Assembly: GCF_019649055.1 (NCBI RefSeq)
Contig: NW_026570356.1
Span: forward strand, 186,001-250,000
Length of the DNA: 64,000 nt
Source of the DNA: Paramacrobiotus metropolitanus
Lineage: Eukaryota > Tardigrada > Eutardigrada > Parachela > Macrobiotidae
Direction: 5' to 3'
The notes below the pieces were generated by a model. It worked only from the letters and a program-made list of their open reading frames with translations. It ran no database searches and was not told the origin of the DNA. The position numbers were made by a program, and so were the translations under genes. Positions within the stretch are counted from its first letter, which is position 1. Each line of letters starts with the position of its first letter. Shown here piece by piece: positions 19,375 through 37,345 of this stretch.

Positions 19375-19722
19375 TGTGAGCGGGGGTTCACTAGCGTTCA
19401 CGTCCGCAACGTTACGCCACTGGATTACGTGTCTGTGTTGTGTCTCGCCTTTGATTGGCTTACGTTTTGTTAGTGGGCGCGGCATAGCACGTGCTGCACA
19501 GTGATGCACACTGTTGAATTGGCTCTACGCTTTACGATCGAGCTGCGCCGATCAGTATTGATTTTCTGTTCTCCAGACTTTTCAATATTAAAAAGTCAGC
19601 AATTTACGGTGCGACGTTTTGTGATTTCGCATAGTTCGCAATCCAGATCGTATTGCTCACTTCCGCAGGATAGATTCTGTTTCTGTCTCTGTCCCTGGAT
19701 CCATTCTGGATCTAGCATTAGA
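19375..19722 (+). repeat. 5' LTR, 348 bp
   Basis: It starts TGTGAGCGGGGG and ends CTAGCATTAGA. It differs from the 3' LTR at three positions (about 19,412, 19,451, 19,594). ATTGG (CCAAT-box complement) occurs twice; ATTAAA at 19,587 is a possible poly(A) signal. No convincing TATA box. The ends are TG...GA rather than the common TG...CA, but both LTRs agree. Confidence 0.97.
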
Positions 19723-19733
19723 TGGTAGCAGAG
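19723..19733 (+). promoter_or_regulatory. Primer-binding site for initiator tRNA-Met
   Basis: TGGTAGCAGAG directly abuts the 5' LTR and is the exact complement of the 3' end of eukaryotic initiator tRNA-Met (CTCTGCTACCA). Identity stops after 11 bases. Minus-strand DNA synthesis would start here; several Ty1/copia and Ty3 elements use the same primer. Confidence 0.9.
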
Positions 19734-20602
19734 CCGACAGCGGTTCTCTGATTTGATTTGATTGGTGTCAGGCATATCTGGCCTGTTATTGACGTGTTAT
19801 CCGTGACCAGTAAGGCACAGGTCTGTGTGACAGCAAAGCGCACACCACAAGCGGTGAAACTGCCTCATCGGACGTGGATTTCCAGCTTTGGTTTTCGGTA
19901 CGGTATCTTCAGCGAAGAACCGTGCTGTTTCCTCAGCTGTGCAAGAGTACAAGAGTTCAGTCGCCAGTGTTCCTCGGTGTAGAGTCTTCAGCGAAGGCCT
20001 ACACTGGTGTCACTGGTACTCGGCAAGGATTCAGCGAATCCTAAGCCGTGGGTCACAAGCGACGAAGCGCCGAAAGGGGCGCACGGATTTTGCCAGATCA
20101 GACTCCTCCAAACTGGCAGTAGAGCACCATTACTGTTGCTACGGCACAGCCGGCACAGTAACCGACTAATAGCGCGAGGCACGCTACGGAACAGCGGCGA
20201 CGCGGGAGCGGAGTTGGAAGAAGAATTGGAGCATCTGGATCATTCTCCCCGTGGAACGGACGGACGGTTAACAGGTAGAAAAACCGTTATTAATTACGGG
20301 ATTGGCCAGTTGGTAAATTTGGCAATTTCTATTGGTCCGTACTGAGCTGAGCATAAAAGTAGGCGGAGTTCTGCACGCGGCACGCATGTCTGGCCGTTGA
20401 CCGTGACGTCAGGCTAATATAAAATTTAAATGGTCTAACGTGATTGGTCAGTTACCTGAGCTGTGATTGGTCGAAAGTTGAACTGAACATTTTGAGCTAG
20501 CCGACCAATCAGAACGACGTAAACAACCTGAATGGGGATTTTCCGTTGAACTTTAGCTGTAATGGGAAATTTGATCTGAAATGAGGTAATTGAGACGGAA
20601 AG

Positions 20603-21081
20603 TGACCTTTTGAGTTGAGACAAAGGAAAAGTGACCTTTGATCAAAATTGAGCTAGAAAGTGACCTTTGAAAGAATGGAGCCGGAAATTGACCTTTAACT
20701 CGAATTGAGCTGGAAAGTGACCTTTTAACTTGAAATGAGTTGGGAAGTGACCTTTTGAGTTAAGTTGAGGCGGAAAGTGACCTTTAAGATCAGAAGTTGA
20801 CCTTTGAGTTTGGAAAGTGACCTTTACTAAAAAGTTGAAATCGACTTAATTGACCTATTTTAATGACCTTTAAGGTCTGAAATCGACGAACGGTGACCTT
20901 TATCGAAGTGAAATTGAATTGAATGTTTCGAAGTTTTGTCTGAAGAGTGACCTTTAGGGCAAATCTCTCGAACTTTTTGTTGAAAAAGTGACCTTTAGAC
21001 GGGACTTAGTCGGAACTTTTCAACCGAAAAGTGACCTTTAACAGGCGACTTAGAAAATTTCACAGAACGAAAGTGACCTTT
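20603..21081 (+). promoter_or_regulatory. Leader array of 15 TGACCTTT octamers
   Basis: Exact TGACCTTT starts at 20603, 20632, 20661, 20689, 20718, 20748, 20778, 20798, 20818, 20864, 20894, 20948, 20989, 21032 and 21074; a one-base variant lies at 20,851. All are on the + strand. Spacings are 29, 29, 28, 29, 30, 30, 20, 20, 46, 30, 54, 41, 43 and 42, so most fall near two, three or four helical turns. The complement AAAGGTCA is the NBRE bound by NR4A monomers and contains the AGGTCA half-site of many nuclear receptors. Between copies a loose 'gaaagtgacctt..agttgag' context suggests tandem origin followed by drift. The site identity is seen; protein binding is inference. Confidence 0.9.
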
Positions 21082-21156
21082 AGGACAATTGAATGAACCA
21101 TACAATAACGTGTTTGTGAGAACAATTGACAGGAGCGTGCAAGTTATCCGATCAAC

Positions 21157-22980
21157 ATGGATAAAGACAAAGAAGAACCGACATCTAACAGCAGTCAGGG
21201 AAGCAAAAGCTCCCGCAGCTCACAGCAAGGTGCACCAAACCCATACGAAAGGGATTTTCACACGTACTCACGTCCAGTCGGACATGAGCGGAACACTCGA
21301 GCGCCTAAGGCATTCGAGAAGAAAGATTCGCGAGGCTTTGATAGCACTTATCAGAAGGCGCTCGAGGCGGTCGCCAACTAAGAAAGTTCGAGTGACGACC
21401 AGAAGCATACTCCCGCGTCTGCGGCGGGAAGTCACCCGATGAACCAGACAAAGGTCACTGGGGAGGAAAAATCCACAGAAAGAGGAGCGGAAGTAGTGGG
21501 AGCATCACAGCTGGATGCTACCGTTAGCGGAATGCACGAGCGGGATTAAAATGTGAACCTGACTCAAATGGAAGTTGAAGAGACAAAGGTCACCAAAATG
21601 GAACTGGTTGAAATGGGACTGGATGACCTTTCATTGAACGATAAGACCGCAGGCGATGACCTTTGGGCAACTCCAATGGTCTCAGACGAATCAAATAAAT
21701 CGTATTTCACGGACGATGAAACAACGATGAATATGTCCTTTCAATCCGCAATGAGACAAGCTGACCGTGCTGAAGGGATGACACCTTTCAAAGAGATACC
21801 GGAGCACCTCATCGAACGGACACAAACAGGAAAGGTCATCAACGTACGACCACCGTCACCTAACAGTCCCACGTCAACGCTGAAGAGACGCGTGAAGGAG
21901 TTGGAAGAAGAACTCGAAGCCAAGGAAGGCCTGGTGACGAAGAGGAAACAGGAATATCAAAATCGGATAGGATCTCTGGATGCTCGTATCTATGAGCTGG
22001 AGCAACAAAAGGCTGACTTGGAAAGCGCAGCAGATGAATGGAAGATTGAATACGAGCGTCAAAAATAACTCGCCGAGGAGTACTTGAAAATGGTAGATGA
22101 CAGAGAAATGGAAGGTCATCTTGCAGTCAGTGACCTTAACGAGAGTATGTCCGAGGAAACAGCGGAAAGGTCACGGCACTTGGCAGAATTGAAGGATGAA
22201 TGTGACTCATTGAAACTTAACGTCACTGAAGCGGAAGATAAGAGAGACGAATATGCGGCTAAACTCGTCGACGCTACTCAACGATTGTTGACAAACACCA
22301 ACGAGGTGTTTAAGTTGAGAAACGAATTGAAGTTACGAGACGAGAACATCGGAACCCTTCAAAAAGAATCACAGGATCATCAGAGGAGAGCCGATGACGC
22401 TGTCAAAGTGGCTAAGGACCTGAGGGAGCTCACAGCCACTGAAGGTGTACGGTTGAGTACCGAAATCAAGCAGGTGATGGAGGAGAATAAGGTGTTGAAA
22501 GAGGATAACAAAAAGGTCACCGATGAGATTAAGGAACTAAAGGAGGCTGCCAAGACGATTTCGGAACAAGGGCTGAGATGGGAACACGAGGCATATCTCC
22601 TTGACATAAAGGTCACCGCACTTGAACTGAAAGATAAAGAATGGCAACAGACGGTACATCAGAAGACACAGGAGATCATCAGACTCAACACGGAGCTGAT
22701 CGATATGACCCAAACGGTAATGACGAAGGAAGATGATGTCACCCAAACAAAAGACCAGTTGAAAGCAGCAGCTGAGGAATATATGAAATTGGAAAGAGAT
22801 GTGACCCAGTCAGCGGAACACATCAGGAAAGTGGAAAATGATACCGAAAAAGTCATCCAAGACAAAACGCTTCAATTACATCAGCACACATCAGCACATG
22901 TCAGCACACTTCAAGTTCTGGTTCAACCAAGAGAACCAGAACTTGAAGAACGAAAAAGAACAATCCGATTTAAGGATTAA
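21157..22980 (+). CDS. gag: Gag N-terminal region, long coiled coil, with three in-frame TAA codons
   Basis: One reading frame runs from ATG 21,157 to 22,980, broken only by TAA at 21,379, 21,547 and 22,066. The first part is Ser/Gln/charge-rich (SSQGSKSSRSSQQ). From about 21,860 it is strongly heptad-like, e.g. RVKELEEELEAKEG and IYELEQQKADLESAADEW, continuing past the third stop (from ATG 22,084) with KDECDSLKLNVTEAEDKRDE. Several hundred residues of coiled coil ahead of capsid is unusual for Ty3/gypsy Gag and suggests an oligomerisation role. Near 22,900 the coding frame moves by one, at a 40-nt hairpin; the last residues of this frame are probably not native. Many AAAGGTCA/TGACCTTT copies lie within. 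Function beyond Gag is not claimed. Confidence 0.7.
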
Positions 22981-24631
22981 GCGTCTCGAAGATGAGAATA
23001 AAGCCCTTCAAATGTCCAACAAGCATAAAGATGAACAGCTCCTACAACACGGAGTCAGAGCAGCGACAGTGGAATCACCGCCGCCCAGTTACAGCAAGGC
23101 GCATGAAACGGGCACGGGCAAAAGCTTTCACTTCGAGATGCCGCTACGAACTGGCACCGGTAAAAGAAGTGTCAAAAATGAAAGAGATGGCGAAAAGGTC
23201 AAAGACGACAAAGAGCCACCTTCGGAAAGTTACCCGCATATGAGCCGAGGTGACCCCTCACAATTTCCTCCGCACATCGAAACAAATGTGTTCGTTGACG
23301 ATGGACGACGGGACAGACCCTCCAGCCGACAGGAGCGTCAAAGGAAATCCCGTTATGAGAAGGTGAAACGAAACCAAAATGACGATGACGGTAGCGAAGA
23401 AGAGGATGATCCGAGAGCAGAAACGACAGCAGCACAACTGACAAAAGCGCTCAACTCGATGGCTCGGAAAAACACACTCGTGACCTTTGATGGCAGCCGC
23501 GACACCGTAAATGGTTGGACAAGATTGGTAAAAGAAACGCAGAAAACCTACCAGCTTACCGACGATCAAATCATGATCGAGATAGCCAGCGCGGTGAAAG
23601 GTCCCGCTAAAACCTGGTTTGAAGGAGAAAAGGATATTGCATCAGAAGACGGAATTGAATACTCAGTAACGGAGTGGATGGACAAATTCAAAGACGAATA
23701 CGGTGATCGAGATGAAGAAGTCCTAGGCTTACGTGAGGCCTACGCAAGGAAATTTGAACTCGGAAAGGAATCGCTTGACCAGTATTACCAGGCGATGATG
23801 CGCTTCAAGGCAAAAAGAATCATGCAGAATCAAGCAGTCGGCTTCCTAATTGAAGGATGCAGAGTGGATAACGAACTCTACAAAGCATTGCGTACACAAA
23901 AGTGCAGAACGCCAACTGATGTAAAGGACTTCTTCAGACATTGGGCTACTGGCGAAGAAAAATATAAGGCGCCTGAAATTCAACGTAACCAGGAATACGT
24001 GACCATCCGCCAAGGCCAAGTTGAAAATGTACCACAACAAAGGATGGCAGCTGCACCAGTCCAACAGCCAGTGGAATACCGCGTGGAAACCCCGGTCAGA
24101 GAGGTCACGGAAAAGGTGACCTTTATCGACAGTCAGACGGGGCAACCGATAACATACGCAATGGTAGCGGCGATACAAGCGGCGGCTCAGGTGAGACCGG
24201 TACCTCAGAATGTGGCTCCACCGGTACCACAGAACGTGGCCCCTCCGAATGTCGGGCTACCACAACAAGGAGTGGGTAACGGAAATTTCAGTGGAAACGG
24301 ATACGGAAATGGAAATTGGAATGGAGGTCAAGGGAACTTCCAGAATCAGGGTCAAGGTCAAGGCTACATTCAGCCAAATAGAGGAAACCAGAACTACCTG
24401 CAGAACCAAGGGTCACGAACTGAGTTCAAGTTCCAAAAGATTGACGGATGGGTTGCAAACGGCGTACAGATGTGCCAATACTGTATGTATGGCAATCATC
24501 AGACACAGGGGTGCAAGTTCGTTAAAACACACCACCGGAACAGAATCCGAATCTGTTTGCCTTCCGAGAGTGGCAACGCCTTCGCGCTACGGGCGGCTGG
24601 CGTCAAGCGGTGGCAAATGGATATGATCTGA
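22838..24631 (+). CDS. gag: Gag: end of coiled coil, capsid domain and CCHC zinc knuckle
   Basis: The frame is native from about 22,940 onward (LKNEKEQSDLRIKRLEDENK continues the coiled coil). A basic, acidic and Pro-rich linker follows, then a retrotransposon-Gag capsid-like region around residues 205-385 (NGWTRLVKETQKTYQ, AKTWFEG, WMDKFKDEYGD, LDQYYQAMMRF). A Gly/Asn/Gln-rich stretch precedes a zinc knuckle of form C-x2-C-x4-H-x4-C at 24,473-24,514 (CQYCMYGNHQTQGC). The first in-frame ATG is not the native start. Just after the knuckle, near 24,520, coding continues in the -1 frame; residues from there to 24,631 are probably out of frame. Confidence 0.85.
   Translation: MIPKKSSKTKRFNYISTHQHMSAHFKFWFNQENQNLKNEKEQSDLRIKRLEDENKALQMSNKHKDEQLLQHGVRAATVESPPPSYSKAHETGTGKSFHFEMPLRTGTGKRSVKNERDGEKVKDDKEPPSESYPHMSRGDPSQFPPHIETNVFVDDGRRDRPSSRQERQRKSRYEKVKRNQNDDDGSEEEDDPRAETTAAQLTKALNSMARKNTLVTFDGSRDTVNGWTRLVKETQKTYQLTDDQIMIEIASAVKGPAKTWFEGEKDIASEDGIEYSVTEWMDKFKDEYGDRDEEVLGLREAYARKFELGKESLDQYYQAMMRFKAKRIMQNQAVGFLIEGCRVDNELYKALRTQKCRTPTDVKDFFRHWATGEEKYKAPEIQRNQEYVTIRQGQVENVPQQRMAAAPVQQPVEYRVETPVREVTEKVTFIDSQTGQPITYAMVAAIQAAAQVRPVPQNVAPPVPQNVAPPNVGLPQQGVGNGNFSGNGYGNGNWNGGQGNFQNQGQGQGYIQPNRGNQNYLQNQGSRTEFKFQKIDGWVANGVQMCQYCMYGNHQTQGCKFVKTHHRNRIRICLPSESGNAFALRAAGVKRWQMDMI
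22909..22948 (+). repeat. Perfect 16-bp hairpin at a gag frame offset
   Basis: CTTCAAGTTCTGGTTC (22,909-22,924) and its exact complement (22,933-22,948) with an 8-nt loop. The coiled-coil reading frame changes here, so the hairpin looks like a local inverted duplication that damaged gag. It belongs to the same class as the palindromes elsewhere in the window. Confidence 0.85.
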
Positions 24632-24975
24632 TCGCGCAATGGTACCAGGTTAAGGGAAACTTCCAAAATCAACAAGGGAACGGAAACGGCAACTATGGAA
24701 ATGGAAATGGCGTTGGCCAGAATGGCGGCTACGGCCGTGGTGGCTTCGGCCGCGGCGGCTTCAGAGGAAGAGGCAGAGGCTTTGGCCGCGGAAACTTTAG
24801 AGGTGGCGGCAATGGCGGCGGCCAAGGCAACTACCAACAGGGTGGTGGCCAGAATAACGGAGGTGGCCCGGTAAACGAGCAAGCGCAAGGGAACGTGCAA
24901 GGAAATGTACAAGGGAACGTGCAGGGCGCGCAACAAGGTGGAGTTCCGGTTCAGGGAAACGGGCAAGATCAGTAG
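24526..24975 (+). CDS. gag: Gag C-terminal tail, RGG/Gly-Asn-rich, ending at TAG
   Basis: The open frame resumes here, with a plausible sequence (NLFAFREWQRLRATGGWRQA) before a Gly/Asn/Arg tail with repeated GRGGF, GRGRGF and GQGN units. Such RGG-type tails bind RNA, consistent with a nucleocapsid role. It ends with TAG at 24,973, which lies inside the frameshift stem-loop. It is offset by -1 from the preceding capsid frame without a canonical slippery heptamer at that point, so that upstream offset is probably a one-base loss or sequencing error. Confidence 0.75.
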   Translation, partial: NTPPEQNPNLFAFREWQRLRATGGWRQAVANGYDLIAQWYQVKGNFQNQQGNGNGNYGNGNGVGQNGGYGRGGFGRGGFRGRGRGFGRGNFRGGGNGGGQGNYQQGGGQNNGGGPVNEQAQGNVQGNVQGNVQGAQQGGVPVQGNGQDQ

Positions 24976-24996
24976 GCACCGGTGAGCCTACTGATC
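24954..24996 (+). promoter_or_regulatory. -1 programmed ribosomal frameshift signal between gag and pol
   Basis: The heptamer G GGA AAC (24,954-24,960) is in the correct phase relative to gag. A 6-nt spacer (24,961-24,966) and a perfect 11-bp stem follow: GATCAGTAGGC at 24,967-24,977, loop ACCGGTGA, GCCTACTGATC at 24,986-24,996. The gag TAG (24,973) is within the 5' arm. A -1 slip enters the pol frame, which stays open to 29,885. GGGAAAC is an established -1 slippery sequence in some RNA viruses. Caveat: perfect hairpins are common in this window. Confidence 0.85.
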
Positions 24997-27900
24997 GACC
25001 CGACCCTAAACCACCGGATAAAAAGGGAACGGAAAGGTCACCACTGCAGAATGGTACTGCAGTGAATGTGACCACTGCAACGGCTATACGGATGCCGTCA
25101 GCGCAAGAGGAAACGGCTAGATGGATGCCGCCACAGCAAAGAGAAACGGCTATATGGATGCCGTCATCGCAAAAAGGAAATGGAACGGTTATAAGGATAC
25201 TGTCACAAAATCAAAGGTCACCGCAGAATGGCACTGCGAGTGGAAACGTTCAAGTGGATAAAAGGTCACCGCAGAACGGTACTACGAGTGGAAACGCGCA
25301 ACGGGACCAAAGGTCACCGCAGAATGGTACTGCGAGTGGAAATTGTCGTGACGGTAGCGCGACACAGCAAAAAGTGCAGCAAAATGAAAGGTCACCGTAC
25401 TGCAGCGAAGAAGTGCTAGCGCAACGACGCGCACAACGAAATGCGAAAATTCAACAAGCTCTGCTGAATCAGAAGAAACCGCAAAACGTTACGGCGCAAG
25501 AGGAAAATGAGCAACATGCGAAATTCCGAAAGTATTTGGCAGAAAACGACAAAACGAATGAGCCATGTTGCGACTGTCACGGCGAGATAAAGCCTAAGTT
25601 CTGGAATTGTTCCGAGGACGAGGAAGAGAAGCTGATAAGGCAAAAATGGATAGAGCAGAATATCACTAACAGTAAAGATGAAAGGTCATCTTCTGTTGGA
25701 AAAGTTCAAGTGAAAGGTCAAGGAGCAAGTGCGTACGCTAAAAGTCACGGTGAAAGCACCGTGTTAAAAGGTCAAGAAACAGACTTGACACTGCGAACAG
25801 CGCAGCAAAAGAATAGGGAACCGGCACAACAAAACTCCGACGACTCACTTGTGGATGCAGTAACGTTGAAGCGGAAGGAAATCTGGCGAAAAGTGGCCTA
25901 CAGACCGAACGGGAATCACGGGATGTGGATATCAGTAACGCCAAAAGCGAAGCAGAAAGCAGGAATGTCACAAGAAGATTACTGGGACAGGCAAGAATTG
26001 CGAACGCAACATGAGAGGAAAAGATTAGAAGAGTTGGTTACCGGGAAACCAGCCCAAGGGTCACCGAACCCAGTCCCAGCATTCAATGCAGAGGAATATA
26101 AGAAGACATTCGCTGACTGGAATTATTCACGTAATGCTCCGCCACAGGATAAACCGCCGAATTATGGTGAAAAAGTCCCCATACAAAAGCTGACAAACGG
26201 CGGATTTGTCATGAAGCGCAACGAAAGGTCACAGGACTTAGCGCAAAACGAACAAAGAGGTAGGTCAAACGAGATGGCGCAAACGCAACAGAGTAGCGCA
26301 GTCGAAAGGTCACGGGACTTATCACAAGCACTGCAAAAGGATGCCAATGACAAGTCACCAGCCCGAACAGACGGAATGTCTTCACAAATCGACCTGACGA
26401 AAACGAACAATGAAGTGTCTGCAAAGGTGATCGAATGGATGACTGAAAAGGGATATGATATGGTTACATATGAAAGGTCACCAGATGAGATGAGAGATAG
26501 TGAAGAAGATGAATTGAAGCGAGCCGACCAAATAACAAGCGAAGTCATTGAGAAGCCGCGAGATAAACGAAATGAAAACCGTAAAGAGGAACTGATCCAT
26601 CAGACGATAAATGAAGTGACTAAAGGTCATGTGGATAGCACAAAAGCAAATGAGCAAGTGCAGAATGTGGAAAAGGTCATCAGTGGTAAAATGGCTACAG
26701 AGAAGCAAACAAATAAAGAAAAGCCGCGAAAATATTACGATGTTCGAACTGACGTTCCACACAGGATTGATAAGTTGAGCGAAATACTGAAAGGTCATAG
26801 CACTCCAGCAAAAGGACAAGTGCTTCCCGATATGGATCCGGGACCAGTATCGCTCATCCCCGTGAAATGTAAGATTCACACACTGAAGATTCAAAACGGA
26901 AAATTGCCTAAAAGAATCGAAGCTTACACACACGAAGTGAAAGTGGGAGACATAAAGGTCAACGCAATGTTGGACACCGGCGCTGAGACGTCGCTGATCA
27001 GCAAACCGTTTTGCGAGAAGAATGGCCTTCACATGCTCCCACTACCACCAGATAGACTGGTGAGAATAAATGGAATTAGTGGAACGTCAGGATTCATGGT
27101 GACGCACTACTGTGTAGCACCAGTGACCTTAAGGAAAAAGACTAGCGAACATTCCTTCTACGTCCGACCGAAGTGTGACGACGTACAAGTGTTATTGGGA
27201 TTCGACTTCTTAGAGAAGAAGTTCGTACTAATGGATAACGAAGGGGAAGAAGAAAAAGAAGATGACCCCAAACCAGTCGCCAAAGTTCAAGTCGGAAAGG
27301 TCACCGAATTCGTAAAACAGACGGTAAATGCTCAAACGGTTAATAAAACGCTAATCCCAGTACCAGAGGCACCGGGAAACGAAAAGAAAAAGCTGGCGCA
27401 AAAAGAATTGTCAACATTTGAACAGTTGAAAGTGATCCAGCAGGAGATTGAAAATACATTAAACCTGAAAATGCTGACACAAAAGGGAAGAGAAAAGGTC
27501 ATCCCAGTACCAGAGGCACCGGGAATGCCGAGAGTGCAGCAGAACGAGATCAGCCAACGGACAATCCCGGTACCAGAGGCACCGGAGAAGAAAAGCGAAA
27601 GCGTAAATGTCAAAAAAGTCAACGAAAGGAAAAAGGAACCGCTTGTGCCAGACATGGATGAGGCGATCATATTTCTCCCGGACGGGAGAAGTATGATCGC
27701 AGATGACTGTGAACAAGGAGCCACAGAAAAAGAATGTGTTGAAAAAGTTATCTCAGTACCAGAGGCACTGGGAAAGAAATTTGAAAGGTCACCTGCGATA
27801 AGAGTACCAGAGCGTACTCCGAAGTTCTTCGAACCAAGATCTGCTACCCAAAATGAAAGTTCACCAGATAAAGCCAAAGAAAAAGTAACAGAACGTGACC

Positions 27901-29888
27901 CTCAAAAGGAACCCTTTTTCGAACCACACTCTGCTATCAATGACGAAAGGTCACCAACGCTTGAAGAGATAATTGCCACACAGAAAGAAGCGGCAGCCGC
28001 AGCGAAACAATCGCTCGTGCGTGGCATGGAGTGGGCAAGGCCTATCTCAGTACCAGAGGCACTGGGAATAAAGACGGCTAAAGTATGGAAGGATAAAAAG
28101 AGTCAAAGGTTACGGGTATTGAAACGAATAGCCGAAGAGGAACAGATGTTAACAAGTGAAATTCGTAACAAGGCGCTCGAACAGTTGAATAGTCACCGAA
28201 CACAAAAAGAACCAGAGGTCATCGAAATATCCTCTGAGGACAAAAGCGTGACTCCAATCGAATGTGAGGAAGATACCACAGCACAGGAAAAGGTTAAACC
28301 GCAAGCGAGTCAACGGACATTAACTTCAGACGAACGAGCCAGGAGTTGTCATCACGGCTACTTTGAGGACCCGTGCAGAATACAACCACAATGGGAATGT
28401 GCAGAATGTTGCGAAAACGCCTCCCAAGATGACCTTTTACAATGGCCGAAATGTAATGCCGCAATAGCAGACCTTAAAGGTCATGCCCAAAAGGAAGTAA
28501 AAAGGATCATGCGGACAAACGAAATGTGGAAGCCACACATTGAGCGGTATCACTGTAACAGATACCGGACTTGGTTGTCATGCGTGAAGAGCTTCATTAT
28601 CGGGAGAGAAAGATGGCCAAATCACTGGTTACAACGTGTCGAGAAAGGAATCCAGGATCCTCTTGATCCGGTAGCAACCGAAAGGAGATTCGAAAGAGAG
28701 ATAGAAGAGATGAACGAGGAAGGAGAGATGTGGGAAGAAGCGAGAGTTGACCTCTTCTGGGACTTCCGTGTGAACCACATGTACAAAGGTGAAGGGAGAA
28801 CGATCATCTTTCCGGCAGGACTTGGTACCCCTGTCTACGAATCACTCGAAGTATATTACAACGCGTTAAAAGAGGGGAACGAAGAAGTATTCCAAAAATA
28901 TTGGAATAAATTTGAAGAAGAGATCCCCAGATTTGACTTAAAAGAGATGCGAGAATTACAAGCAACCCGGAAAAGAAGGTTACCGGGAATAACGCAAAAG
29001 AAAAAGGTGACCTTTGCACCAGATCCAGATGGAGTGGACTACCCAGAACGAGGTGGTGATACGTGGTGCATGTATGAAACGATTCACGATGATGAGTGGG
29101 TCACCGAAGAACTGATGGCAAACTGCATTTTCGTCGGTCCCAAACGACCTAAAGGTTATGAGAAGGTCCAACAGGACGAAACTGATAAAGAGACGGTAAA
29201 AGAAACAGAGAAAAAAGTAACAGTTGAAGAGATAGTTGAAGGAGGATCAAACGAAACGGGAGAAAGTTCAAAGTCGGCCTTCGACATTGCACAGATGTTA
29301 ACGGACAGAACCGAAATGTGGAAGAGGTTTAAAGAAGAAGTTGAACGAATATCAAATGAGCAGCAAAACCCAGTACCTGAGGCAAAAGCTGACGAAAGGT
29401 CACCCGAGAACGGCGAAAGTGAACCAATCGAAGAGATTAAGGAACCACTATTGAGCCTCGAAGAAATCGACGAATTGGAAAAGTCAAAGTCAGAAGAAGA
29501 AAGGTCAAACTCCGATCAATCAGAAAGGTCACCAACGAGAATTCGAGTAGCAAAGAGTCACCCGAGAGTCGCCGCACGAAATGGTCGAAAAACAAAGGAA
29601 GGGGACAAACCCCTGCCCAAAAATTCCAAAGCGAAAAAACTTAGCGATTCGCGCGAAAACGAAAGTGACCTTTCATCAGAAGATGAAGGAGTTGATGGGC
29701 GACCACTCGAAAAGGCTGACAAAGGTCAAGCTACTGCACAGGAATATGAGAGCAGTAACTCGGACTCCGAGTGGACGAGTTCAAGTGATAACTCGACGAC
29801 TTCGGAAGATTCAGGTGTAAGTGACCTTTCAGAACAAGAGGACTTACTGGATTTGGATGAAGACGACGAAGTGGATGAAGAAAAATAA
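24960..29888 (+). CDS. pol: Pol part 1: repeat-rich linker, aspartic protease, large extra region
   Basis: Entered by -1 frameshift; about 1,640 codons to TAA 29,886. (1) N-terminal linker with repeated ERSPQNGT-type units, each containing an AGGTCACC-type nucleotide motif. (2) A retropepsin-like aspartic protease: catalytic Asp at 26,973 in LDTGAETSLIS and a conserved C-terminal LLGFDFL near 27,195-27,215. (3) About 870 residues not found between protease and RT in typical Ty3 elements: six P(V)PEA repeats, FFEP repeats, a Cys/His- and Trp-rich globular-looking segment (28,345-29,160, with CHHGYFEDPC and CAECC), and an acidic Ser/Glu tail. The terminal TAA is followed by open frame in the same phase, so it separates protease from RT. 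Confidence 0.85.
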   Translation, partial: RARSVGTGEPTDRPDPKPPDKKGTERSPLQNGTAVNVTTATAIRMPSAQEETARWMPPQQRETAIWMPSSQKGNGTVIRILSQNQRSPQNGTASGNVQVDKRSPQNGTTSGNAQRDQRSPQNGTASGNCRDGSATQQKVQQNERSPYCSEEVLAQRRAQRNAKIQQALLNQKKPQNVTAQEENEQHAKFRKYLAENDKTNEPCCDCHGEIKPKFWNCSEDEEEKLIRQKWIEQNITNSKDERSSSVGKVQVKGQGASAYAKSHGESTVLKGQETDLTLRTAQQKNREPAQQNSDDSLVDAVTLKRKEIWRKVAYRPNGNHGMWISVTPKAKQKAGMSQEDYWDRQELRTQHERKRLEELVTGKPAQGSPNPVPAFNAEEYKKTFADWNYSRNAPPQDKPPNYGEKVPIQKLTNGGFVMKRNERSQDLAQNEQRGRSNEMAQTQQSSAVERSRDLSQALQKDANDKSPARTDGMSSQIDLTKTNNEVSAKVIEWMTEKGYDMVTYERSPDEMRDSEEDELKRADQITSEVIEKPRDKRNENRKEELIHQTINEVTKGHVDSTKANEQVQNVEKVISGKMATEKQTNKEKPRKYYDVRTDVPHRIDKLSEILKGHSTPAKGQVLPDMDPGPVSLIPVKCKIHTLKIQNGKLPKRIEAYTHEVKVGDIKVNAMLDTGAETSLISKPFCEKNGLHMLPLPPDRLVRINGISGTSGFMVTHYCVAPVTLRKKTSEHSFYVRPKCDDVQVLLGFDFLEKKFVLMDNEGEEEKEDDPKPVAKVQVGKVTEFVKQTVNAQTVNKTLIPVPEAPGNEKKKLAQKELSTFEQLKVIQQEIENTLNLKMLTQKGREKVIPVPEAPGMPRVQQNEISQRTIPVPEAPEKKSESVNVKKVNERKKEPLVPDMDEAIIFLPDGRSMIADDCEQGATEKECVEKVISVPEALGKKFERSPAIRVPERTPKFFEPRSATQNESSPDKAKEKVTERDPQKEPFFEPHSAINDERSPTLEEIIATQKEAAAAAKQSLVRGMEWARPISVPEALGIKTAKVWKDKKSQRLRVLKRIAEEEQMLTSEIRNKALEQLNSHRTQKEPEVIEISSEDKSVTPIECEEDTTAQEKVKPQASQRTLTSDERARSCHHGYFEDPCRIQPQWECAECCENASQDDLLQWPKCNAAIADLKGHAQKEVKRIMRTNEMWKPHIERYHCNRYRTWLSCVKSFIIGRERWPNHWLQRVEKGIQDPLDPVATERRFEREIEEMNEEGEMWEEARVDLFWDFRVNHMYKGEGRTIIFPAGLGTPVYESLEVYYNALKEGNEEVFQKYWNKFEEEIPRFDLKEMRELQATRKRRLPGITQKKKVTFAPDPDGVDYPERGGDTWCMYETIHDDEWVTEELMANCIFVGPKRPKGYEKVQQDETDKETVKETEKKVTVEEIVEGGSNETGESSKSAFDIAQMLTDRTEMWKRFKEEVERISNEQQNPVPEAKADERSPENGESEPIEEIKEPLLSLEEIDELEKSKSEEERSNSDQSERSPTRIRVAKSHPRVAARNGRKTKEGDKPLPKNSKAKKLSDSRENESDLSSEDEGVDGRPLEKADKGQATAQEYESSNSDSEWTSSSDNSTTSEDSGVSDLSEQEDLLDLDEDDEVDEEK

Positions 29889-32438
29889 AAGGATATTAAA
29901 GTCAGAAGATTGAAAGTGGAAAAAACCAGAATGTCGAAAGACGTGATTAAAGTCTACAGTGATCAAAGAATTAAATTGAAACCGTCAAACTGCACAAGGG
30001 TAAAGGTCAAGATGGGAAAATATGCACCGGCTCAAAACAAGTTGATGTTTACACCGGTCCCACAAGTGGAAACCGAAGTGCAACCGTTGGCAGGAGTTAC
30101 GGACCACAGAGGAAAATACTTTGAAATCGTCATTGCGAATCATAGTAGCAAATACCGAATCGTGAAGAAAAATCAGCTTCTCGGCTATGTTGAGCCGTAT
30201 GAACATATGGAGAATGTAAAGGTCAACGCAGGGACAGTAAAGAACGTACTCGAAGACCCTGAGGTAAACGATACAACGAAAGCTGAAATGAAAAAGATAA
30301 TCGAAAACTTGAAATTGGGACCTGACCTTACCCAAGAGCAGAAAAACGACGTGTATAACGCGTTCTGGGAATTCTGGAAGGTCTTACCCACATCAAAGAA
30401 ACCCTATGGAGATGTGAAAGGGGTCACCCATGTAATCGATACGGGAGACGCGAAACCAGTTAAATGCAACCCGGCCAGAACGAGTTGGACAGGTCGTGAG
30501 TTCATAACAAAGCATATCGAAGAGATGTTGGCACAAGACGTAATTGAACCGTCAGATGCTGAATGGAGCTTCCCAGTCGTATTGGCAATAAAGAAAAATG
30601 ACGACGGAACAATGGGAACCAGATTTTGTGTCAATTACATCATGCTTAACAAGCTGACGAGAAAGAATAACTACCCACTACCGAATCCGGATGAGTTGCT
30701 CGACGCGTCCGCAGGCAACAAATATTACGGGAAAATGGATCTACAAAGTGGATTCTGGCAGATCCCAATGGATCCAGCGTCAATCAACAAGACGACCTTT
30801 GTTACGCAAGATGGAATGTACCGATTTAAAAGAATGCCATTTGGCGTATGCAACGGACCAGCAACATTTCAATTGTGTATGGATAAAGTACTCTCGAAAG
30901 CGAAAAGAAAAGGATGCGTTTTCGGGTACATTGATGACGTTATCTTTGCTGGAAAAACTTGGGAAATTTTCATGCAGAATTTGAGAAATGTCTTAATGAG
31001 CCTGGTTGAAGCGGGATTCACCATCAAACCAACTAAGTGTGAATTCGGGATGAGACAAATGGGATTTCTGGGTCACATACTCAGCGAAGATGGAATTCGA
31101 ATGGATCCGGAAAAGGTCACCGTGGTCTCAGAATTCAAACGACCTCAAACAGAAAGGCAGTTAATGTCATTCCTTGGACTAGCAAATTATTATCGCAAGT
31201 TCATAATGGGATACGCACAGAAGACATGCCACTTGTATGAGTTGCTGAGACAAGATAAACACGTGAAAAAGGACTGGACAGCAGTGCACGTAGAGTTTAA
31301 CAGTCTGAAAAAGCTTTTGTGTGAAGGTCCAGTACTGGCAAAGTTTGACCCAGCAAAACCGACCGTCATTGAATGCGACGCGAGCAAGGAAGGAATTGGA
31401 GCAGTACTGTCACAAGATGGACATCCGATCGCATATGCGAGCCGCGTCCTGCATGGAGCCGAGAAAAATTACGGCGTAACGGAATGGGAATGTCTGGCAG
31501 TAGTGTTCGCTGTCAGGAAATTCAAGCCGTATATTGATTATGCAGAATTTACCGTAAGGACGGATCATCAGGCGCTGACCAACTTGTTGAGGTCACAGAC
31601 GAATAAAGTGGGAATGAATCCACGCCTGACAAGATGGGCAATGGCATTACAAGGCCACCAGTTTAAAATTGAATATAAACCCGGAAAATACTGCGACAAC
31701 GCAGACGCGTTATCAAGAGCACCAATTGAAGGTCCGACGTGCCAAGAGGAGGAATTTGATGAGATTCCAAATTTCGAGGACTACAAGAAGGAATTTGACA
31801 CAAAAGAACCAGCAATTGAAATTGGACAGCTGTTCCTGCAGATAGTGGAACAGAGAGAGAAGCGATTAAAGGTCACTTCAGCTACGGCGAACGAGTCGGC
31901 TGAAAACGAAGCAAAAGTGAACCGAGTTAAAAGCTGGTTGCCCACCGTTAGTGACTTAAAGGTCACCGGACTTGATGCGGAATCCGCAATACAGAACCAA
32001 AAGGTCACGGGACTAGGTGTTGGACCAGAGAATAAAGATGACCTTTGGGAAACGGATAAGGTGGCACAAGCGTTAAATGAGTGCCCGATTAAGTTGCTGA
32101 GATTCCCCAAACAGATGAAAAAGAGGTACAAACCGTTACCACGCTGCAAGGTCATCAAAGATTGGAACGAACTCAGCACAGCGACAGTCCGCATCGTCAA
32201 CCTGCAAGGTGACGAGGAAGAGGTAGATGACTCAAGCTTGCAACTGCGAAATAAACAGCTGAAAGATCCCCATCTGGCAATGATAATAGACGAGTTGGAA
32301 CATCTACCAGATGCGGAAACAAGATCGAAATTTGAAGTGCACTACCAGTTATGGAACGGTATATTATACCGAGTAAAGGACAAAAATGGGAGACTTGAAA
32401 GGTCATATGTGGTACCGTTGTCAATCAAAGAGCGATAA
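29889..32438 (+). CDS. pol: Pol part 2: reverse transcriptase and RNase H
   Basis: In the same frame as part 1 after the TAA at 29,886. RT motifs appear in order: FPVVLAIKKNDDG, FCVNYIMLNKLT, the first catalytic Asp in KMDLQSGFWQI, MPFGVCNGPATFQ, the YIDD box at 30,927-30,938, GFTIKPTKCEF and FLGHILSEDG. RNase H follows with Asp in IECDASKEGIGAV (31,377), Glu in WECLAVVFAV, Asp in RTDHQAL and Asp in CDNADALSRAP. Catalytic residues appear intact. YIDD instead of the more usual YLDD or YVDD is an accepted variant. The C-terminal about 200 residues form the linker to integrase. The frame ends at TAA 32,436, just where integrase coding resumes at -1. First ATG in this part is at 29,931; initiation there is not claimed. 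Confidence 0.92.
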   Translation, partial: KDIKVRRLKVEKTRMSKDVIKVYSDQRIKLKPSNCTRVKVKMGKYAPAQNKLMFTPVPQVETEVQPLAGVTDHRGKYFEIVIANHSSKYRIVKKNQLLGYVEPYEHMENVKVNAGTVKNVLEDPEVNDTTKAEMKKIIENLKLGPDLTQEQKNDVYNAFWEFWKVLPTSKKPYGDVKGVTHVIDTGDAKPVKCNPARTSWTGREFITKHIEEMLAQDVIEPSDAEWSFPVVLAIKKNDDGTMGTRFCVNYIMLNKLTRKNNYPLPNPDELLDASAGNKYYGKMDLQSGFWQIPMDPASINKTTFVTQDGMYRFKRMPFGVCNGPATFQLCMDKVLSKAKRKGCVFGYIDDVIFAGKTWEIFMQNLRNVLMSLVEAGFTIKPTKCEFGMRQMGFLGHILSEDGIRMDPEKVTVVSEFKRPQTERQLMSFLGLANYYRKFIMGYAQKTCHLYELLRQDKHVKKDWTAVHVEFNSLKKLLCEGPVLAKFDPAKPTVIECDASKEGIGAVLSQDGHPIAYASRVLHGAEKNYGVTEWECLAVVFAVRKFKPYIDYAEFTVRTDHQALTNLLRSQTNKVGMNPRLTRWAMALQGHQFKIEYKPGKYCDNADALSRAPIEGPTCQEEEFDEIPNFEDYKKEFDTKEPAIEIGQLFLQIVEQREKRLKVTSATANESAENEAKVNRVKSWLPTVSDLKVTGLDAESAIQNQKVTGLGVGPENKDDLWETDKVAQALNECPIKLLRFPKQMKKRYKPLPRCKVIKDWNELSTATVRIVNLQGDEEEVDDSSLQLRNKQLKDPHLAMIIDELEHLPDAETRSKFEVHYQLWNGILYRVKDKNGRLERSYVVPLSIKER

Positions 32439-32446
32439 TCCACGCA

Positions 32447-33487
32447 TTGCACGACGAGAAAGCAGCAGGACATTTGGGATTTGAGAAGACATTGACAGCG
32501 ATTCGACTTCGATATTACTGGAAGAGGATGAGTACAGATGTGAAGAATTACATACTCGCCTGCCAAGGATGTCAGTTTCGTAAAACACCGAGGAAATGCC
32601 CGCCCGGAAAACTGCAGGAGATTAAAGTGGGACACCCGTTTTTCCGAGTCTACGCCGACCTGAAGGGACCATTGTTACCAACGAAGAAACGCGGATATAA
32701 GTACATAGCGGTGTTTATTGACCAGCTGACGAAATATGTGATTGCGGTACCAATGAAGACGGCAACGGCTAAAGAGTTCGCAAAAGTGTTCGTGAAGCAC
32801 GTGATATTGGTACACGGAGCACCGCACATCCTGCATTCGGATCGCGGACGACACTTCACAGCTGAAGTATTGGCAAAGGTCACCAATGTGTTTAAGATAA
32901 AACACACATTCGGAACGGCATATCATCCGGAAGGTCAAGGCCAAGTTGAAAGACAGATGCAAACGATTGCGGATGGCTTGGCACAGTACCTGAAAGCGGG
33001 AAATGAACGAAAGTTTAACAAGTATCTCCCATACGTTATTTCGGCGATGAATAGAGTCGTGCACACCACAACGGGATATTCAGCATACTATATGCTACAC
33101 GGCAGAGAAATGACAATGCCGGAAGATGTGGTCACAAAAACGAATATACTCGATGATTACGGGACTCCAGACGAATGGGTGGAGACCATGAAAAAGAACT
33201 TGACCTTTGCCGAAGAAGTGGCGAAATGCAATAATAAAGATGCTTATGAGAAGAATGCGGAAATTTACAATAAGAAGTCAGAACCGAACTTCAAAGTGGG
33301 AGATTTTGTACTGATACGATTACCAAAGGATACGAAACAGGGAAGAAGGAAAACCAATCGGACTTTAAATCGAAATACGATAAAGTGTGGAAGATTCTTA
33401 GTTTCCCGCGAACAAACGAGGCAGAGGTTATTGAGCAGAATCCGAAGAAGGAAGCGGATCAAAAAGTGGTTTCGATTGATCGGTTAA
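32447..33487 (+). CDS. pol: Pol part 3: integrase HHCC and DDE core
   Basis: It begins within the zinc-binding HHCC domain (HDEKAAGHLGF ... CQGCQF) and holds the full catalytic core with D, D and E at 32,657 (YADLKG), 32,840 (HSDRGRHF) and 32,948 (GQVERQ). The frame is -1 relative to RT-RNase H. I see no good slippery heptamer at the join, so I favour a one-base loss or assembly error near 32,432 over programmed shifting. Native coding leaves this frame near 33,340, so the Arg-rich end of this open frame is probably spurious. Confidence 0.88.
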   Translation: MHDEKAAGHLGFEKTLTAIRLRYYWKRMSTDVKNYILACQGCQFRKTPRKCPPGKLQEIKVGHPFFRVYADLKGPLLPTKKRGYKYIAVFIDQLTKYVIAVPMKTATAKEFAKVFVKHVILVHGAPHILHSDRGRHFTAEVLAKVTNVFKIKHTFGTAYHPEGQGQVERQMQTIADGLAQYLKAGNERKFNKYLPYVISAMNRVVHTTTGYSAYYMLHGREMTMPEDVVTKTNILDDYGTPDEWVETMKKNLTFAEEVAKCNNKDAYEKNAEIYNKKSEPNFKVGDFVLIRLPKDTKQGRRKTNRTLNRNTIKCGRFLVSREQTRQRLLSRIRRRKRIKKWFRLIG

Positions 33488-34173
33488 AGCCGTGGCATCC
33501 GCCGCTACCCGATGCAAATGTACCAAAGTGTACCCGAAACGATGTGGAGCAACTCGTTGAACCACGCCCCGAGGTAGCAGAGCGCACCTCCCGGACAGAG
33601 CCTTTTTTCGAGCCACCTCTGCTACCTGAAATGGAGAATGTTAACGGGAAGGAAAGTGAACTAGAACGAAGTCCGAAAAATGACTCAGTCACACAACAGA
33701 AACCATTTTTCGAACCACGCCCTCTGCTACCGGATACAAGCGGAGATAAACCGAAACAGAAGAGAGGAAGAAAAAGGAAAGAGGACAAAGATTTTGAAAC
33801 TGCAGTTACAGTTAAGCTGAACGCAGAAGCTGGAAACTTGGCAGAAAGGTCACTGGAAAAAGATACCGAACCGAGTTCCAAAGTACCAGAGCGTACTTCC
33901 AAAAAGGACTTGCAACAATCCTTTTTCGAACCACGCACTGCTACCGACAATGAAAATGACCTCATAAAAAAGCGAAAAGAGGCAATAGAGGCGGTCAAAA
34001 CAAAGGCAGAACAATTGGGCCGCGATATAGCGAAAGCAATCAATGAGCGAAAGGTCAAGCAGAAGAAGAAGAAACCAACTCCTACGGAACTGCTAACCCA
34101 GAAAGGCGAACCTGAGGACGCAGCCGAGAAAGAACTCCTGGATCGGATAACTAAAGGACGCGAAAACAAATAA
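33340..34173 (+). CDS. pol: Pol part 4: integrase C-terminal domain and charged tail
   Basis: It continues the integrase C-terminal region (SKYDKVWKILSFPRTN, VSIDRLKPWHPP), the SH3-like part of Ty3 integrases, after another -1 offset near 33,335-33,345. Then comes a Lys/Glu-rich tail with three FFEP repeats (EPFFEPPLLP, KPFFEPRPLLP, SFFEPRTAT) and a basic stretch RGRKRKEDK that could be a nuclear-localisation signal. No chromodomain is recognised. It ends at TAA 34,171. Confidence 0.75.
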   Translation, partial: GKKENQSDFKSKYDKVWKILSFPRTNEAEVIEQNPKKEADQKVVSIDRLKPWHPPLPDANVPKCTRNDVEQLVEPRPEVAERTSRTEPFFEPPLLPEMENVNGKESELERSPKNDSVTQQKPFFEPRPLLPDTSGDKPKQKRGRKRKEDKDFETAVTVKLNAEAGNLAERSLEKDTEPSSKVPERTSKKDLQQSFFEPRTATDNENDLIKKRKEAIEAVKTKAEQLGRDIAKAINERKVKQKKKKPTPTELLTQKGEPEDAAEKELLDRITKGRENK

Positions 34174-34709
34174 CCCTCATGAATATGAATAATGGGGTCC
34201 ACTTCATTAAAAATAGGAGTTGGGAAGGCATAAAGGTCACACGACGCAAAGCGGCCAATCGTTATTGTTTTCGTTGCTAGCCAGAAAGATCATCAATTTG
34301 AAAGGTCATCAGACTTAGACTGAATCATGCGGTAGAAGTGAACAACGAAAAGGTCACATAATTCGGAATCATCAGAAAAGTCGAAAGGTCCTCAAATTCG
34401 TCAGGACGGTCTTCATAAAGGTTATTCGGGACGAAAGGTCATCAGAAATTGTCGCCCAGTCGAAAGGTTGTGAAATCGACGGAAGAACAAACGGAAGAAG
34501 TGAACGATCATTCGAAAGGTCACTAGACTCCAACTGGAATTCAAACTAAAAAGAAAAGGTCAAGAGGATTCGGAAAAACGCGGGAACAAAGGTCATGAGA
34601 CTCCAGACGAGGTTGTTATGGCAAAGGTCAGACATTTGAAGAAGCCGAAAGGTCAAATAACTGAAGACTAAAAAGGTAAAGTGACCAATGATCCAAAGGT
34701 TAAGCGCAA
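34174..34709 (+). promoter_or_regulatory. Post-pol region dense in AAAGGTCA
   Basis: Non-coding by eye. About a dozen AAAGGTCA or one-base variants occur, nearly all on the + strand (e.g. near 34,232, 34,301, 34,349, 34,434, 34,516), opposite to the leader array. Confidence 0.7.
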
Positions 34710-35552
34710 ATGAACTTAAAGGTCAAATATCAAATGAACCAAGTGTCAAGTGAAAGGTCAAGTGGCAGACCGCCTGAAGGTCACGGGACTTTCACAGAAA
34801 AATTCGAACAGCCTAAAGGTCAAAAGACGTCTGGAACCGTGGAAAAGGAAGCGCAACCTAAAAGTCAAGAGAATTCCTTGTCTACAGAACAACCGAAAGG
34901 TCACGAGACCTTGAAAGAAGGGAGGAAAGAAAAGGCCGTGCTCCCCATGGGAAAAGCGGCAGTGGATTCAGAAGCGGACTCCGCGCGACAGGTGGTTCAA
35001 AAGATCGTTGTTTACACTGTTGAAAGAGCCTTCAGCGACGTAGAAACCGAAAGCTCAAGAGATTCCACTGGCGACCGAGATATCGGAAGGTCACGAGACT
35101 TTGCCACAAGAAAAGAAGACCGGTGAACCGAAATCGGCTCAGTCATCGTCCGGTTCGTTGGCGAAGCTGAAGATTGTCGAGACAGAGGAAACGGACCCAA
35201 CGGACTCGGCATTATCCCCCCCAGAAACCGGAAACCAGTGGTACACAAGCGAAATACATACCGACCTACATGTCCGAAGCACCACTGGATGATAACAACA
35301 GGACATGGCGAGAAATCAGTAGTGCCTTCGAACGGGAGATGTAAAGCGTGGAGAGTCGCCATAACGGATGCAGCAATTGACAATATCAGCGGAACAAACG
35401 CAGTGACATTGACTGACCTTTTGGACTGCATGGCTGTCGATTTCGAAACGTAAAAATTGAATATCAGAAAAGACGGGGAATGGTCCAGAAAAGCTGTTGA
35501 ATGTTTGAATATCGACGGAGCACTTGAATTGGTGGAAACGTCAAAAGCGTGA
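34710..35552 (+). pseudogene. Third ORF (accessory, env position), broken
   Basis: From ATG 34,710 a hydrophilic frame with repeated PKG(Q/H) units (QPKGQKT, QPKSQEN, QPKGHET) runs to TGA 35,124. The same frame reopens for a more conserved-looking stretch (CPKHHW, CKAWRVAITDAAIDNISG, LTDLLDCMAVDFE), crosses TAA 35,451 and continues to TGA 35,550. At 35,101-35,292 the +1 frame reads more naturally, so compensating indels are likely. No signal peptide, transmembrane segment or envelope signature is visible; position alone is not evidence for env. Function unknown. Confidence 0.5.
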
Positions 35553-35740
35553 AAGGTCACCATGTGAGAATGAGCTTAATAATGAAACGTGAAAGGTCAT
35601 CACGTTAAAGTACTGAAAAGGTCACTAGAAGTGACTACGAGGGTTAAGTATAAAGGTCACGTAACATATCATTGAAACTGTACGCGTGTATTTTGTTGTT
35701 TTCAGCGTTTATAGCACAGAATTAGAAAGGATAAAGAAAC

Positions 35741-36215: not shown

Positions 36216-36997
36216 CATGTTGAAGTTGGATGTGCGACGGAAAGGTCAAATCAAGTCTTTACCAGGGAGGCAAGCAAAGAAGTGCTTGAAAGCCGCAGAA
36301 AATTGGCTAAGTTCCTCCATGACCGTTGATGAAAGTTTGAAGAAAAGTTGGATGACCTTTGGGATCATTACCGCCCAGGAGAGTCATCGTATCGGAATTC
36401 AAGTCGCATGACCTTTGGGACCATTAACCCAAAACGAGTCGCACATCTCAACGGATCATCTTCATACGGGATGACCTTTACCAGGGAGGAAGCGAACGAC
36501 GCTTGTCTTCATTGACGTCCCTCCATGACCTTTATGGATCCCATTTTGAAGTCGTACAATTGATACGCACCTTATTCCAAAGACGAAGCAGTATTCCTAA
36601 GTCGTACTTGATACGCACCTGATTCTCAAGCGGATTGTGATGAAGTCGCACTACGGATGCGCGGAATTGCTCAACAGAGCGGAATGGGCCAATGTGCGGA
36701 AAACGGTGGACAGGACCTGTGACCTTTACGAGTCAGAAATGGAGGATCCTAGTCTACATTTGATTAATACTTTTGTTGATCTGTTTAACTGTTGATCTGT
36801 TTTATGATAGTATTTTTATAATTGGATCTCTTTATTCACATCGTATTAAATGGAATTGTGCCTTTATGGAATTGATGTGATAAAATGGAATAAGAGAATT
36901 TGATGTTTTTGAGCACGCACAGACACTGGCGACCGTCGTTTTCGTGGATTTGGGAGTGTGTCCAGCCTCACAGGAGCTCGGCATCCCCCCAGAGGCA
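36216..36997 (+). promoter_or_regulatory. 3' region with TGACCTTT in leader orientation
   Basis: After one AAAGGTCA at about 36,241, the motif flips to TGACCTTT (near 36,352, 36,409, 36,471, 36,528, 36,720). Non-coding. Small direct repeats occur around 'gacctttgggaycattacc' and 'ttaccagggaggaagc'. No clean polypurine tract precedes the LTR at 36,998. Confidence 0.65.
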
Positions 36998-37345
36998 TGT
37001 GAGCGGGGGTTCACTAGCGTTCACGTCCGCAACGCTACGCCACTGGATTACGTGTCTGTGTTGTGTCTCGCCTCTGATTGGCTTACGTTTTGTTAGTGGG
37101 CGCGGCATAGCACGTGCTGCACAGTGATGCACACTGTTGAATTGGCTCTACGCTTTACGATCGAGCTGCGCCGATCAGTATTGATTTTCTGTTCTCCAGA
37201 CTTTTCAATATTAAAACGTCAGCAATTTACGGTGCGACGTTTTGTGATTTCGCATAGTTCGCAATCCAGATCGTATTGCTCACTTCCGCAGGATAGATTC
37301 TGTTTCTGTCTCTGTCCCTGGATCCATTCTGGATCTAGCATTAGA
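36998..37345 (+). repeat. 3' LTR, 348 bp
   Basis: Identical in length and ends to the 5' LTR with three substitutions, about 99.1% identity, implying a recent insertion relative to substitution clocks. Confidence 0.97.

What the first reader, a model, noticed from the sequence alone, without database searches (positions are those of the whole stretch)
21157..35660. AAAGGTCA is used in all three codon phases throughout gag, pol and ORF3
The same octamer appears as Lys-Gly-(Gln/His), Lys-Val-(Thr/Ile/Asn) and (Glu)-Arg-Ser, roughly a hundred times by eye (not an exact count), through linkers and even inside RT and integrase regions. Phase-independent use means the nucleic acid word, not a peptide, is being kept or spread. 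I noticed only a few copies (near 41,404, 44,415 and 56,466) in the 46 kb outside the element. This could be a new type of sequence-wide code in a retroelement: packaging signal, silencing escape or DNA-binding platform.
Basis: partly seen in the sequence, partly recalled or inferred. Interest (0 to 1): 0.93.

Follow-up and report, generated by a model that had tools for sequence, protein, structure and literature searches.

The report
Body-wide DNA word in retrotransposon
A large tardigrade retrotransposon carries the exact 8-letter DNA word AAAGGTCA about 90 times, in all reading frames and on both strands; selection guards the word more strictly than the genes it runs through, and sister families carry different words, as if each had its own DNA recognition tag.

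Summary
Host: the tardigrade Paramacrobiotus metropolitanus. Protein-preserving synonymous shuffles reach at most 12, against 49 in the ORFs. All three codon phases and both strands are used.

The word is under extreme selection. In 29 related copies, motif bases differ at 23 of 3,695 positions, other bases at 12,423 of 118,597; at fourfold-degenerate sites 5 of 577 against 3,921 of 15,354. Conservation begins and ends at the octamer, on both strands, without G-U tolerance, so the target is most simply double-stranded DNA.

Sister families carry other words around a shared AG-N-TC core: AG(A/C/T)TC(A/G) in a lineage where none of 36 aligned sites survives, AGGTCGG in one outgroup, probably AGGGTC in another.

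Best explanation: a family-specific DNA tag read by an element-encoded DNA-binding protein, analogous to VANC anti-silencing in Arabidopsis but spread through coding sequence. The candidate reader is a large third ORF with a weak linker-histone-like match. Rivals: a host NR4A-type nuclear receptor, another DNA step such as cDNA import, RNA packaging or pairing.

The parts
19371..19374 (.). GGGG, 5' copy of a 4-bp target site duplication
   Evidence: matches GGGG at 37346-37349 (sequence printed)
19375..19722 (+). 5' LTR; no AAAGGTCA
   Evidence: 348 bp, 99.1% identical to 36998-37345; leader 19375-20602 holds no site
19723..19734 (+). probable primer-binding site TGGTAGCAGAGC
   Evidence: directly follows the 5' LTR; likeness to a tRNA primer site is recalled
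20603..21081 (-). 5' UTR array: 15 copies of the word, all as TGACCTTT, spacing 20-54 bp, partly tandem
21157..24631 (+). gag-like region in several frames (21157-21381, 21553-22068, 22084-22980, 22838-24631), interrupted; coiled-coil part and a CCHC-like motif by eye
   Evidence: no Pfam match above cut-off
25062..29888 (+). pol part 1: long linkers, aspartyl protease (about 26934-27215); 27 sites
25213..25342 (+). 48-bp tandem repeat, 2.7 units, each unit with the word
29910..32438 (+). pol part 2: reverse transcriptase and RNase H; 8 sites
32447..33487 (+). pol part 3: integrase zinc domain and core; 2 sites
33385..34173 (+). C-terminal pol frame; 2 sites
34232..34903 (+). densest non-tandem cluster, 13 sites, all forward
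35343..35531 (+). remnant of an ORF3a domain (51% to the L073 frame, one stop inside); the rest of ORF3a and ORF3b not found in this copy
36353..36727 (-). 3' cluster of 5 sites, all as TGACCTTT
36998..37345 (+). 3' LTR; no AAAGGTCA

Best explanation
AAAGGTCA is a family-specific double-stranded DNA tag, written by base-level selection through the body of a large Ty3-type retrotransposon lineage of Paramacrobiotus metropolitanus. Shown here: the excess, the selection on the letters in every phase and strand, and the use of other AG-N-TC words by sister families. The best candidate is the fast-evolving third ORF (ORF3a, open frames of about 1,620-1,780 residues in other copies, with a weak linker-histone-like domain). 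It would bind its own family's DNA along its whole length and keep it active or mark it as self, as VANC proteins do for VANDAL transposons. My odds: selected DNA-level tag 0.93, element-encoded reader 0.55, effect on silencing or self-recognition 0.45. The confidence below is for the whole chain.
For: Excess 90 against 1.9; synonymous shuffles at most 12 against 49. 29 copies: 23/3,695 against 12,423/118,597, fourfold sites 5/577 against 3,921/15,354, all phases and both strands kept, mean intactness 0.950 against at most 0.747 in 20,000 random sets. At 65% identity 25 and 24 of 36 octamers are intact, same-composition controls 12/270 and 21/282. Lineage-specific sites exist besides shared ones. 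Words by family: AAAGGTCA 62/1.3, 92/2.8, 78/2.2 in W, L039, L040 and 0 in L041, L074, L075; AGGTCGG 10/1.1 and 10/0.6 in L074 only; AGGGTCG 6/0.8 and 3/0.5 in L075 only. ORF3a and ORF3b are found in copies of the different word types; linker histone is the best sub-threshold Pfam match of an ORF3a domain in L076, L073 and P0124. Precedent VANC (PMC5735166, passages).
Against: No binding data and no proven reader; structure prediction never ran. The Pfam match is below cut-off (13.1-15.1 bits against 22.4) and absent in P0125. ORF3a aligned only 27% over 226 residues between a W-type and an L039-type copy although both families use AAAGGTCA. The idea that winged-helix domain 1 tracks the word was refuted. 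No gag or pol segment tracks the word. The 5' UTR arrays are all reverse (15 of 15 in W), which a strand-indifferent reader on an A-rich strand does not predict. L041 words in pol are only modestly enriched. The octamer equals a known host-type site, NBRE.
Confidence: 0.45

Rival explanations
1. Host platform: the word is a binding site of a host nuclear receptor, NR4A-like (NBRE = AAAGGTCA), recruited by the element for expression in certain cells.
For: Exact identity with NBRE (PMC4777543, one passage). The genome encodes nuclear receptors: 63 zf-C4 matches, four DNA-binding domains nearest to NR5A, COUP-TF, ERR and NR2C/USP types. The other words resemble half-site variants (my reading).
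Against: Families with young copies in one genome use different words, which would need a different receptor each. Sites run through all of pol and gag and are absent from LTR and leader, unlike enhancer clusters. An NR4A gene was not singled out: only 4 of 63 matches were compared with solved structures.
Confidence: 0.2
2. Another DNA step: the word is read on the cDNA or provirus by Gag, integrase or a host factor for nuclear import, integration or cis-preference, not for silencing escape.
For: Selection on duplex-type words over the whole body fits any step that handles the full cDNA. The motif divergence of 0.62% is about what drift after insertion alone would give, judged from this copy's LTR difference of 0.9% (inference), so selection may act only during replication.
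Against: Gag and pol show no segment tracking the word; integrase and RT are among the best conserved segments between families with different words.
Confidence: 0.18
3. RNA signal: a packaging or regulatory site in the RNA, or pairing of UGACCUUU in the 5' UTR with AAAGGUCA in the body.
For: The 5' UTR array is all reverse (15 of 15) and the body mostly forward (58 of 69), so the two are complementary in the RNA; concerted change would follow from pairing.
Against: Reverse sites inside the coding region are enriched (10 against 0.11) and kept (106/114). G-U-compatible changes are no commoner than other transitions (6 against 8).
Confidence: 0.12
4. Non-adaptive spread: tandem duplication, composition, mutation bias or gene conversion made and kept the word without function.
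For: Part of the 5' UTR array and a 48-bp repeat at 25213-25342 are tandem.
Against: Most sites share no flanking sequence. Composition and codon use predict 2-4 copies. Seventeen-fold lower divergence with 8-bp edges in 29 copies is too local for conversion tracts, and its absence in L041 speaks against a simple mutation bias.
Confidence: 0.02

Closest known systems
VANC anti-silencing proteins and their motifs in VANDAL transposons (Arabidopsis)
   Same: Short family-specific DNA motif at high density in a selfish element; related families have different motifs; by inference a fast-evolving element protein as reader (PMC5735166 and PMC10398659, passages)
   Different: VANDALs are DNA transposons of a plant; their motifs lie mainly in non-coding tandem repeats in one orientation. 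Here an animal LTR retrotransposon, mostly non-tandem, within coding sequence, on both strands. No reader shown.
Bacterial DNA uptake sequences (Neisseria, Pasteurellaceae)
   Same: Short exact self-recognition word scattered through coding DNA (search listing and abstract starts only)
   Different: Bacterial genomes and transformation; here one retroelement lineage in an animal
NBRE, the NR4A nuclear-receptor site AAAGGTCA
   Same: Identical octamer (PMC4777543, passage)
   Different: Known as a regulatory element; here about 90 copies through coding sequence, with other words in sister families
Ty3-type LTR retrotransposons
   Same: LTRs, target duplication, probable primer site, protease, RT, RNase H, integrase in this order
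   Different: Large; related copies carry two extra 3' genes (open frames up to about 1,780 and 1,010 residues) and the body-wide word

Membership tests
VANC/VANDAL anti-silencing system | Family-specific short DNA motif at high density | tested here: met
VANC/VANDAL anti-silencing system | Motif differs between related families | tested here: met
   strong for AAAGGTCA and AGGTCGG, modest for the L041 and L075 words
VANC/VANDAL anti-silencing system | Motifs mainly in tandem repeats of non-coding DNA, one orientation | tested here: not met
   49 of 90 sites in ORF segments, both strands, mostly non-tandem
VANC/VANDAL anti-silencing system | Host element is a VANDAL (Mutator-like) DNA transposon | tested here: not met
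   LTR retrotransposon domains
VANC/VANDAL anti-silencing system | Element protein binds the motif and removes silencing | not testable with these tools
   needs binding and chromatin experiments
Ty3-type LTR retrotransposon | LTRs, short target duplication, protease-RT-RNase H-integrase order | tested here: met
NR4A/NBRE platform | Site sequence AAAGGTCA | tested here: met
NR4A/NBRE platform | NR4A receptor present in the host | tested here: inconclusive
   63 zf-C4 matches; 4 compared with solved structures, nearest NR5A, COUP-TF, ERR, NR2C/USP
Linker-histone / winged-helix protein (ORF3a) | PF00538 above the curated cut-off or winged-helix fold | tested here: inconclusive
   13.1-15.1 bits against 22.4 in L076, L073, P0124; no match in P0125; fold prediction unavailable

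The most novel reading that the evidence does not exclude
An animal retrotransposon lineage writes a private DNA address, one word or word class per family, into its own protein-coding sequence at several per kilobase. It keeps the address more strictly than its proteins and rewrites it wholesale when families split, in step with an element-encoded DNA-binding protein: a body-wide, coding-embedded self-recognition code of a kind that the searches made here did not show for retroelements.
Probability: 0.4. Interest if true: 0.96.

Novelty: new variant of a known kind. Interest (0 to 1): 0.9.

Why it matters
It is a clear natural case of selection on DNA words inside coding sequence, strong enough to be seen at fourfold-degenerate sites. 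It offers an animal counterpart to VANC anti-silencing, with several families of different word in one genome. How a transposon recognises only itself, and how such a specificity changes, becomes directly testable: express the candidate readers and ask whether each binds its own family's word.

Tried and rejected
Chance, codon use, composition: rejected. Duplication of flanked repeats: rejected for most sites. Regular spacing: none, CV 0.90 against 0.97 for uniform (5-95% 0.78-1.20). RNA pairing: disfavoured, not excluded. A reader domain in gag or pol that tracks the word: none found. Absence of winged-helix domain 1 in word-less copies: suggested, refuted. Nematode host: the SL1 leader is absent; then the tardigrade was identified. 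A phage relative of P0067: none.

I chose by hand 3 copies for 8-kb pieces and 17 for short pieces to span the identity range; L056 is only 537 bp. L064 (5' region of the L045 copy) showed no array and was left out of the word matrix. The rooted tree rests on 201 residues; the node joining W with the L041 side has support 0.24, the node {L058, L045, L043 group, L041 group} 1.0; the unrooted DNA tree places L045 with the word-rich copies instead. The first conservation test of AGGTCGG was weak (5/10, 5/10, 3/9 kept against 0.30, 0.40, 0.29 for other 7-mers); the word then recurred in a separate 5' stretch. AGGGTC in L075/L088 only just exceeds 400 simulations each (9 against maximum 8; 10 against maximum 9). 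AGCTCR and AGTTCR are near expectation in the word-rich families, only AGATCR is depleted there; GAGGTCG is also raised in L041 (6/1.6). The L041-type class ranks first by count but fifth of 29 by conservation in the 5' UTR, and 22nd and 13th of 228 in the pol pieces.
Full report
WHAT IS THERE. The window lies in a 169.8-Mb genome. An NCBI protein of Paramacrobiotus metropolitanus is 95% identical over a fifth of the RT reading frame. The published assembly of Paramacrobiotus sp. TYO (170,483,395 bp, longest scaffold 4,484,941, GC 43.46%; PMC8277472, passages) agrees with ours (contig C1 is 4,484,719 long); that this isolate is now P. metropolitanus is recalled. The element spans 19375-37345: two LTRs 99.1% identical over 348 bp, a GGGG target duplication, a probable primer-binding site, gag-like pieces, protease, RT, RNase H and integrase. 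It is a young but defective copy: gag is interrupted and most of the third gene region of its relatives was not found in it.

THE COUNT. A second-order Markov model predicts 1.9. Two thousand synonymous shuffles that preserve the proteins give at most 12 in eight ORF segments, against 49. The 24 single-mismatch neighbours are only mildly in excess (46 against 27.5), so this is an exact word. Words not overlapping it are far less enriched. Genome-wide it occurs 42,562 times, its reversed control 15,522 times.

STRAND AND PHASE. In 21157-34173, 41 forward and 10 reverse sites stand against 1.31 and 0.11 expected, so the forward bias is no more than the A-rich strand would give. Forward sites fall 6, 16, 18 in the three codon phases. 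The 5' UTR array is all reverse (15 of 15). LTR and leader (19375-20602) hold none.

SELECTION. In 29 other copies (one stretch equal to window 28911-33152; RT proteins 97-99% identical to the window's) bases outside the word differ from the window at 12,423 of 118,597 positions, bases inside at 23 of 3,695. At fourfold-degenerate sites it is 3,921 of 15,354 against 5 of 577; forward octamers are intact 332 of 347 times, reverse 106 of 114, with 3 further cells gapped. No random set of 16 other octamers in 20,000 approached the sites' mean intactness (0.950 against a best of 0.747). In two diverged copies at about 65% identity, 25 and 24 of 36 octamers are intact; per-position identity is 0.81-1.00 inside the word and 0.33-0.73 in the 12 bases on either side. 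These copies also hold sites of their own: presence in W/L039/L040 is 22 in all three, 14 in L039 and L040 only, 5 in another pair, and 9, 4 and 12 in W, L039 or L040 alone.

WORD CHANGE. A copy of a sister lineage (L041), closer to the window (72%) than L039 (65%), has no AAAGGTCA in 8 kb. At 25 ungapped sites shared by W and L039 or L040 it differs by one to five bases, most often in the central GG (12 and 11 of 25 keep G; GG elsewhere keeps 589 of 774). In the 17 short pieces, 4 hold no site, 5 hold 1-3 and 8 hold 6-9; the window's own stretch holds 8. Rooted with two outgroup families, the word-less lineage is nested among word-rich ones, so the word was most simply lost or replaced there. 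In its 5' UTR the commonest six-letter class of its form is AG(A/C/T)TC(A/G): 31 sites, 27 kept in class in L063. Over all L041 pieces AGATCR, AGCTCR and AGTTCR stand at 55/31, 49/23 and 45/24; the L043 group has AGATCR 76/27 besides a remnant of AAAGGTCA (14/0.4). Outgroup L074 has AGGTCGG (10/1.1 in pol, 10/0.6 in a separate 5' stretch); L075 has AGGGTC (9 and 10, simulation means 2.5 and 1.7). AGGTCGG and AGGGTCG are at or below expectation in the other families; AGATCR is depleted in the word-rich ones, but AGCTCR and AGTTCR are not. The statistics for L041 pol and for L075 are modest.

HOW IT WORKS. Both strands, all phases, sharp edges, exactness and no excess of G-U-compatible changes (6 of 14 transitions) indicate recognition of duplex DNA; this rests on pattern, not on binding. 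Words that differ between families in one genome speak for a family-specific reader, most simply one encoded by the element. Relatives carry a large ORF3a (open frames 1,621 and 1,640 residues in W-type copies, about 1,780 in L041-type, about 1,755 in an L039-type copy; typed by the neighbouring RT) and an ORF3b with a CPDC...PCWxC motif. Linker histone is the best, sub-threshold Pfam match of an ORF3a domain in three proteins of two element types, and is absent from a fourth, P0125. ORF3a evolves fast: 52% over 207 residues between a W-type and the L041-type copy, against 93% between the window's RT and that copy's. That ORF3a reads the word, and that reading protects from silencing or marks self, is inference.

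AGAINST THIS READING. No reader is proven and structure prediction never ran. ORF3a differs strongly between two word-sharing families (27% over 226 residues). A co-variation idea failed, and no gag or pol segment tracked the word. The all-reverse 5' UTR array is unexplained and would suit RNA pairing. The octamer is identical to the NR4A site NBRE (PMC4777543, one passage), and the host has nuclear receptors.

KNOWN OR NEW. The nearest system is VANC/VANDAL in Arabidopsis (passages): similar logic, different element class, placement and mode of spread. Searches of the open-access library for a retrotransposon with such a body-wide word (listings and abstract starts) showed none; most subscription papers are not held. 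I file it as a new variant of a known kind: a family-specific DNA word in a selfish element, here written through the coding sequence of an animal retrotransposon.

Noticed in passing
G000 C101, C97, C44, C27 and others (L076, L077, L073): Relatives carry two large 3' genes (ORF3a open frames up to about 1,780 residues; ORF3b up to about 1,010) without a Pfam match above cut-off; elements with both must be well over 20 kb.
   Followed up: partly
L088 (5' region of an L075-family copy): Strong excess of ACGAAAAC (16 against 0.43) in or upstream of the leader.
   Followed up: no
window 35783-36203: 188-bp tandem repeat, 2.2 units, in the 3' region of the element.
   Followed up: no
window 27333-28068: Five copies of a 46-nt repeat coding for I-P/S-V-P-E-A in pol linkers; the L041 copy has a similar stretch.
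   Followed up: no
L072 (C97:166200-170788): The L040 copy's 3' side holds 1.5 kb 92% identical to the window element's 3' end in opposite orientation, perhaps a nested or neighbouring insertion.
   Followed up: no
window 3500-5860 with 13400-15760, and 41500-43500 with 46400-60200: Diverged duplicated stretches (74-86%) in the host flanks, probably gene families.
   Followed up: no
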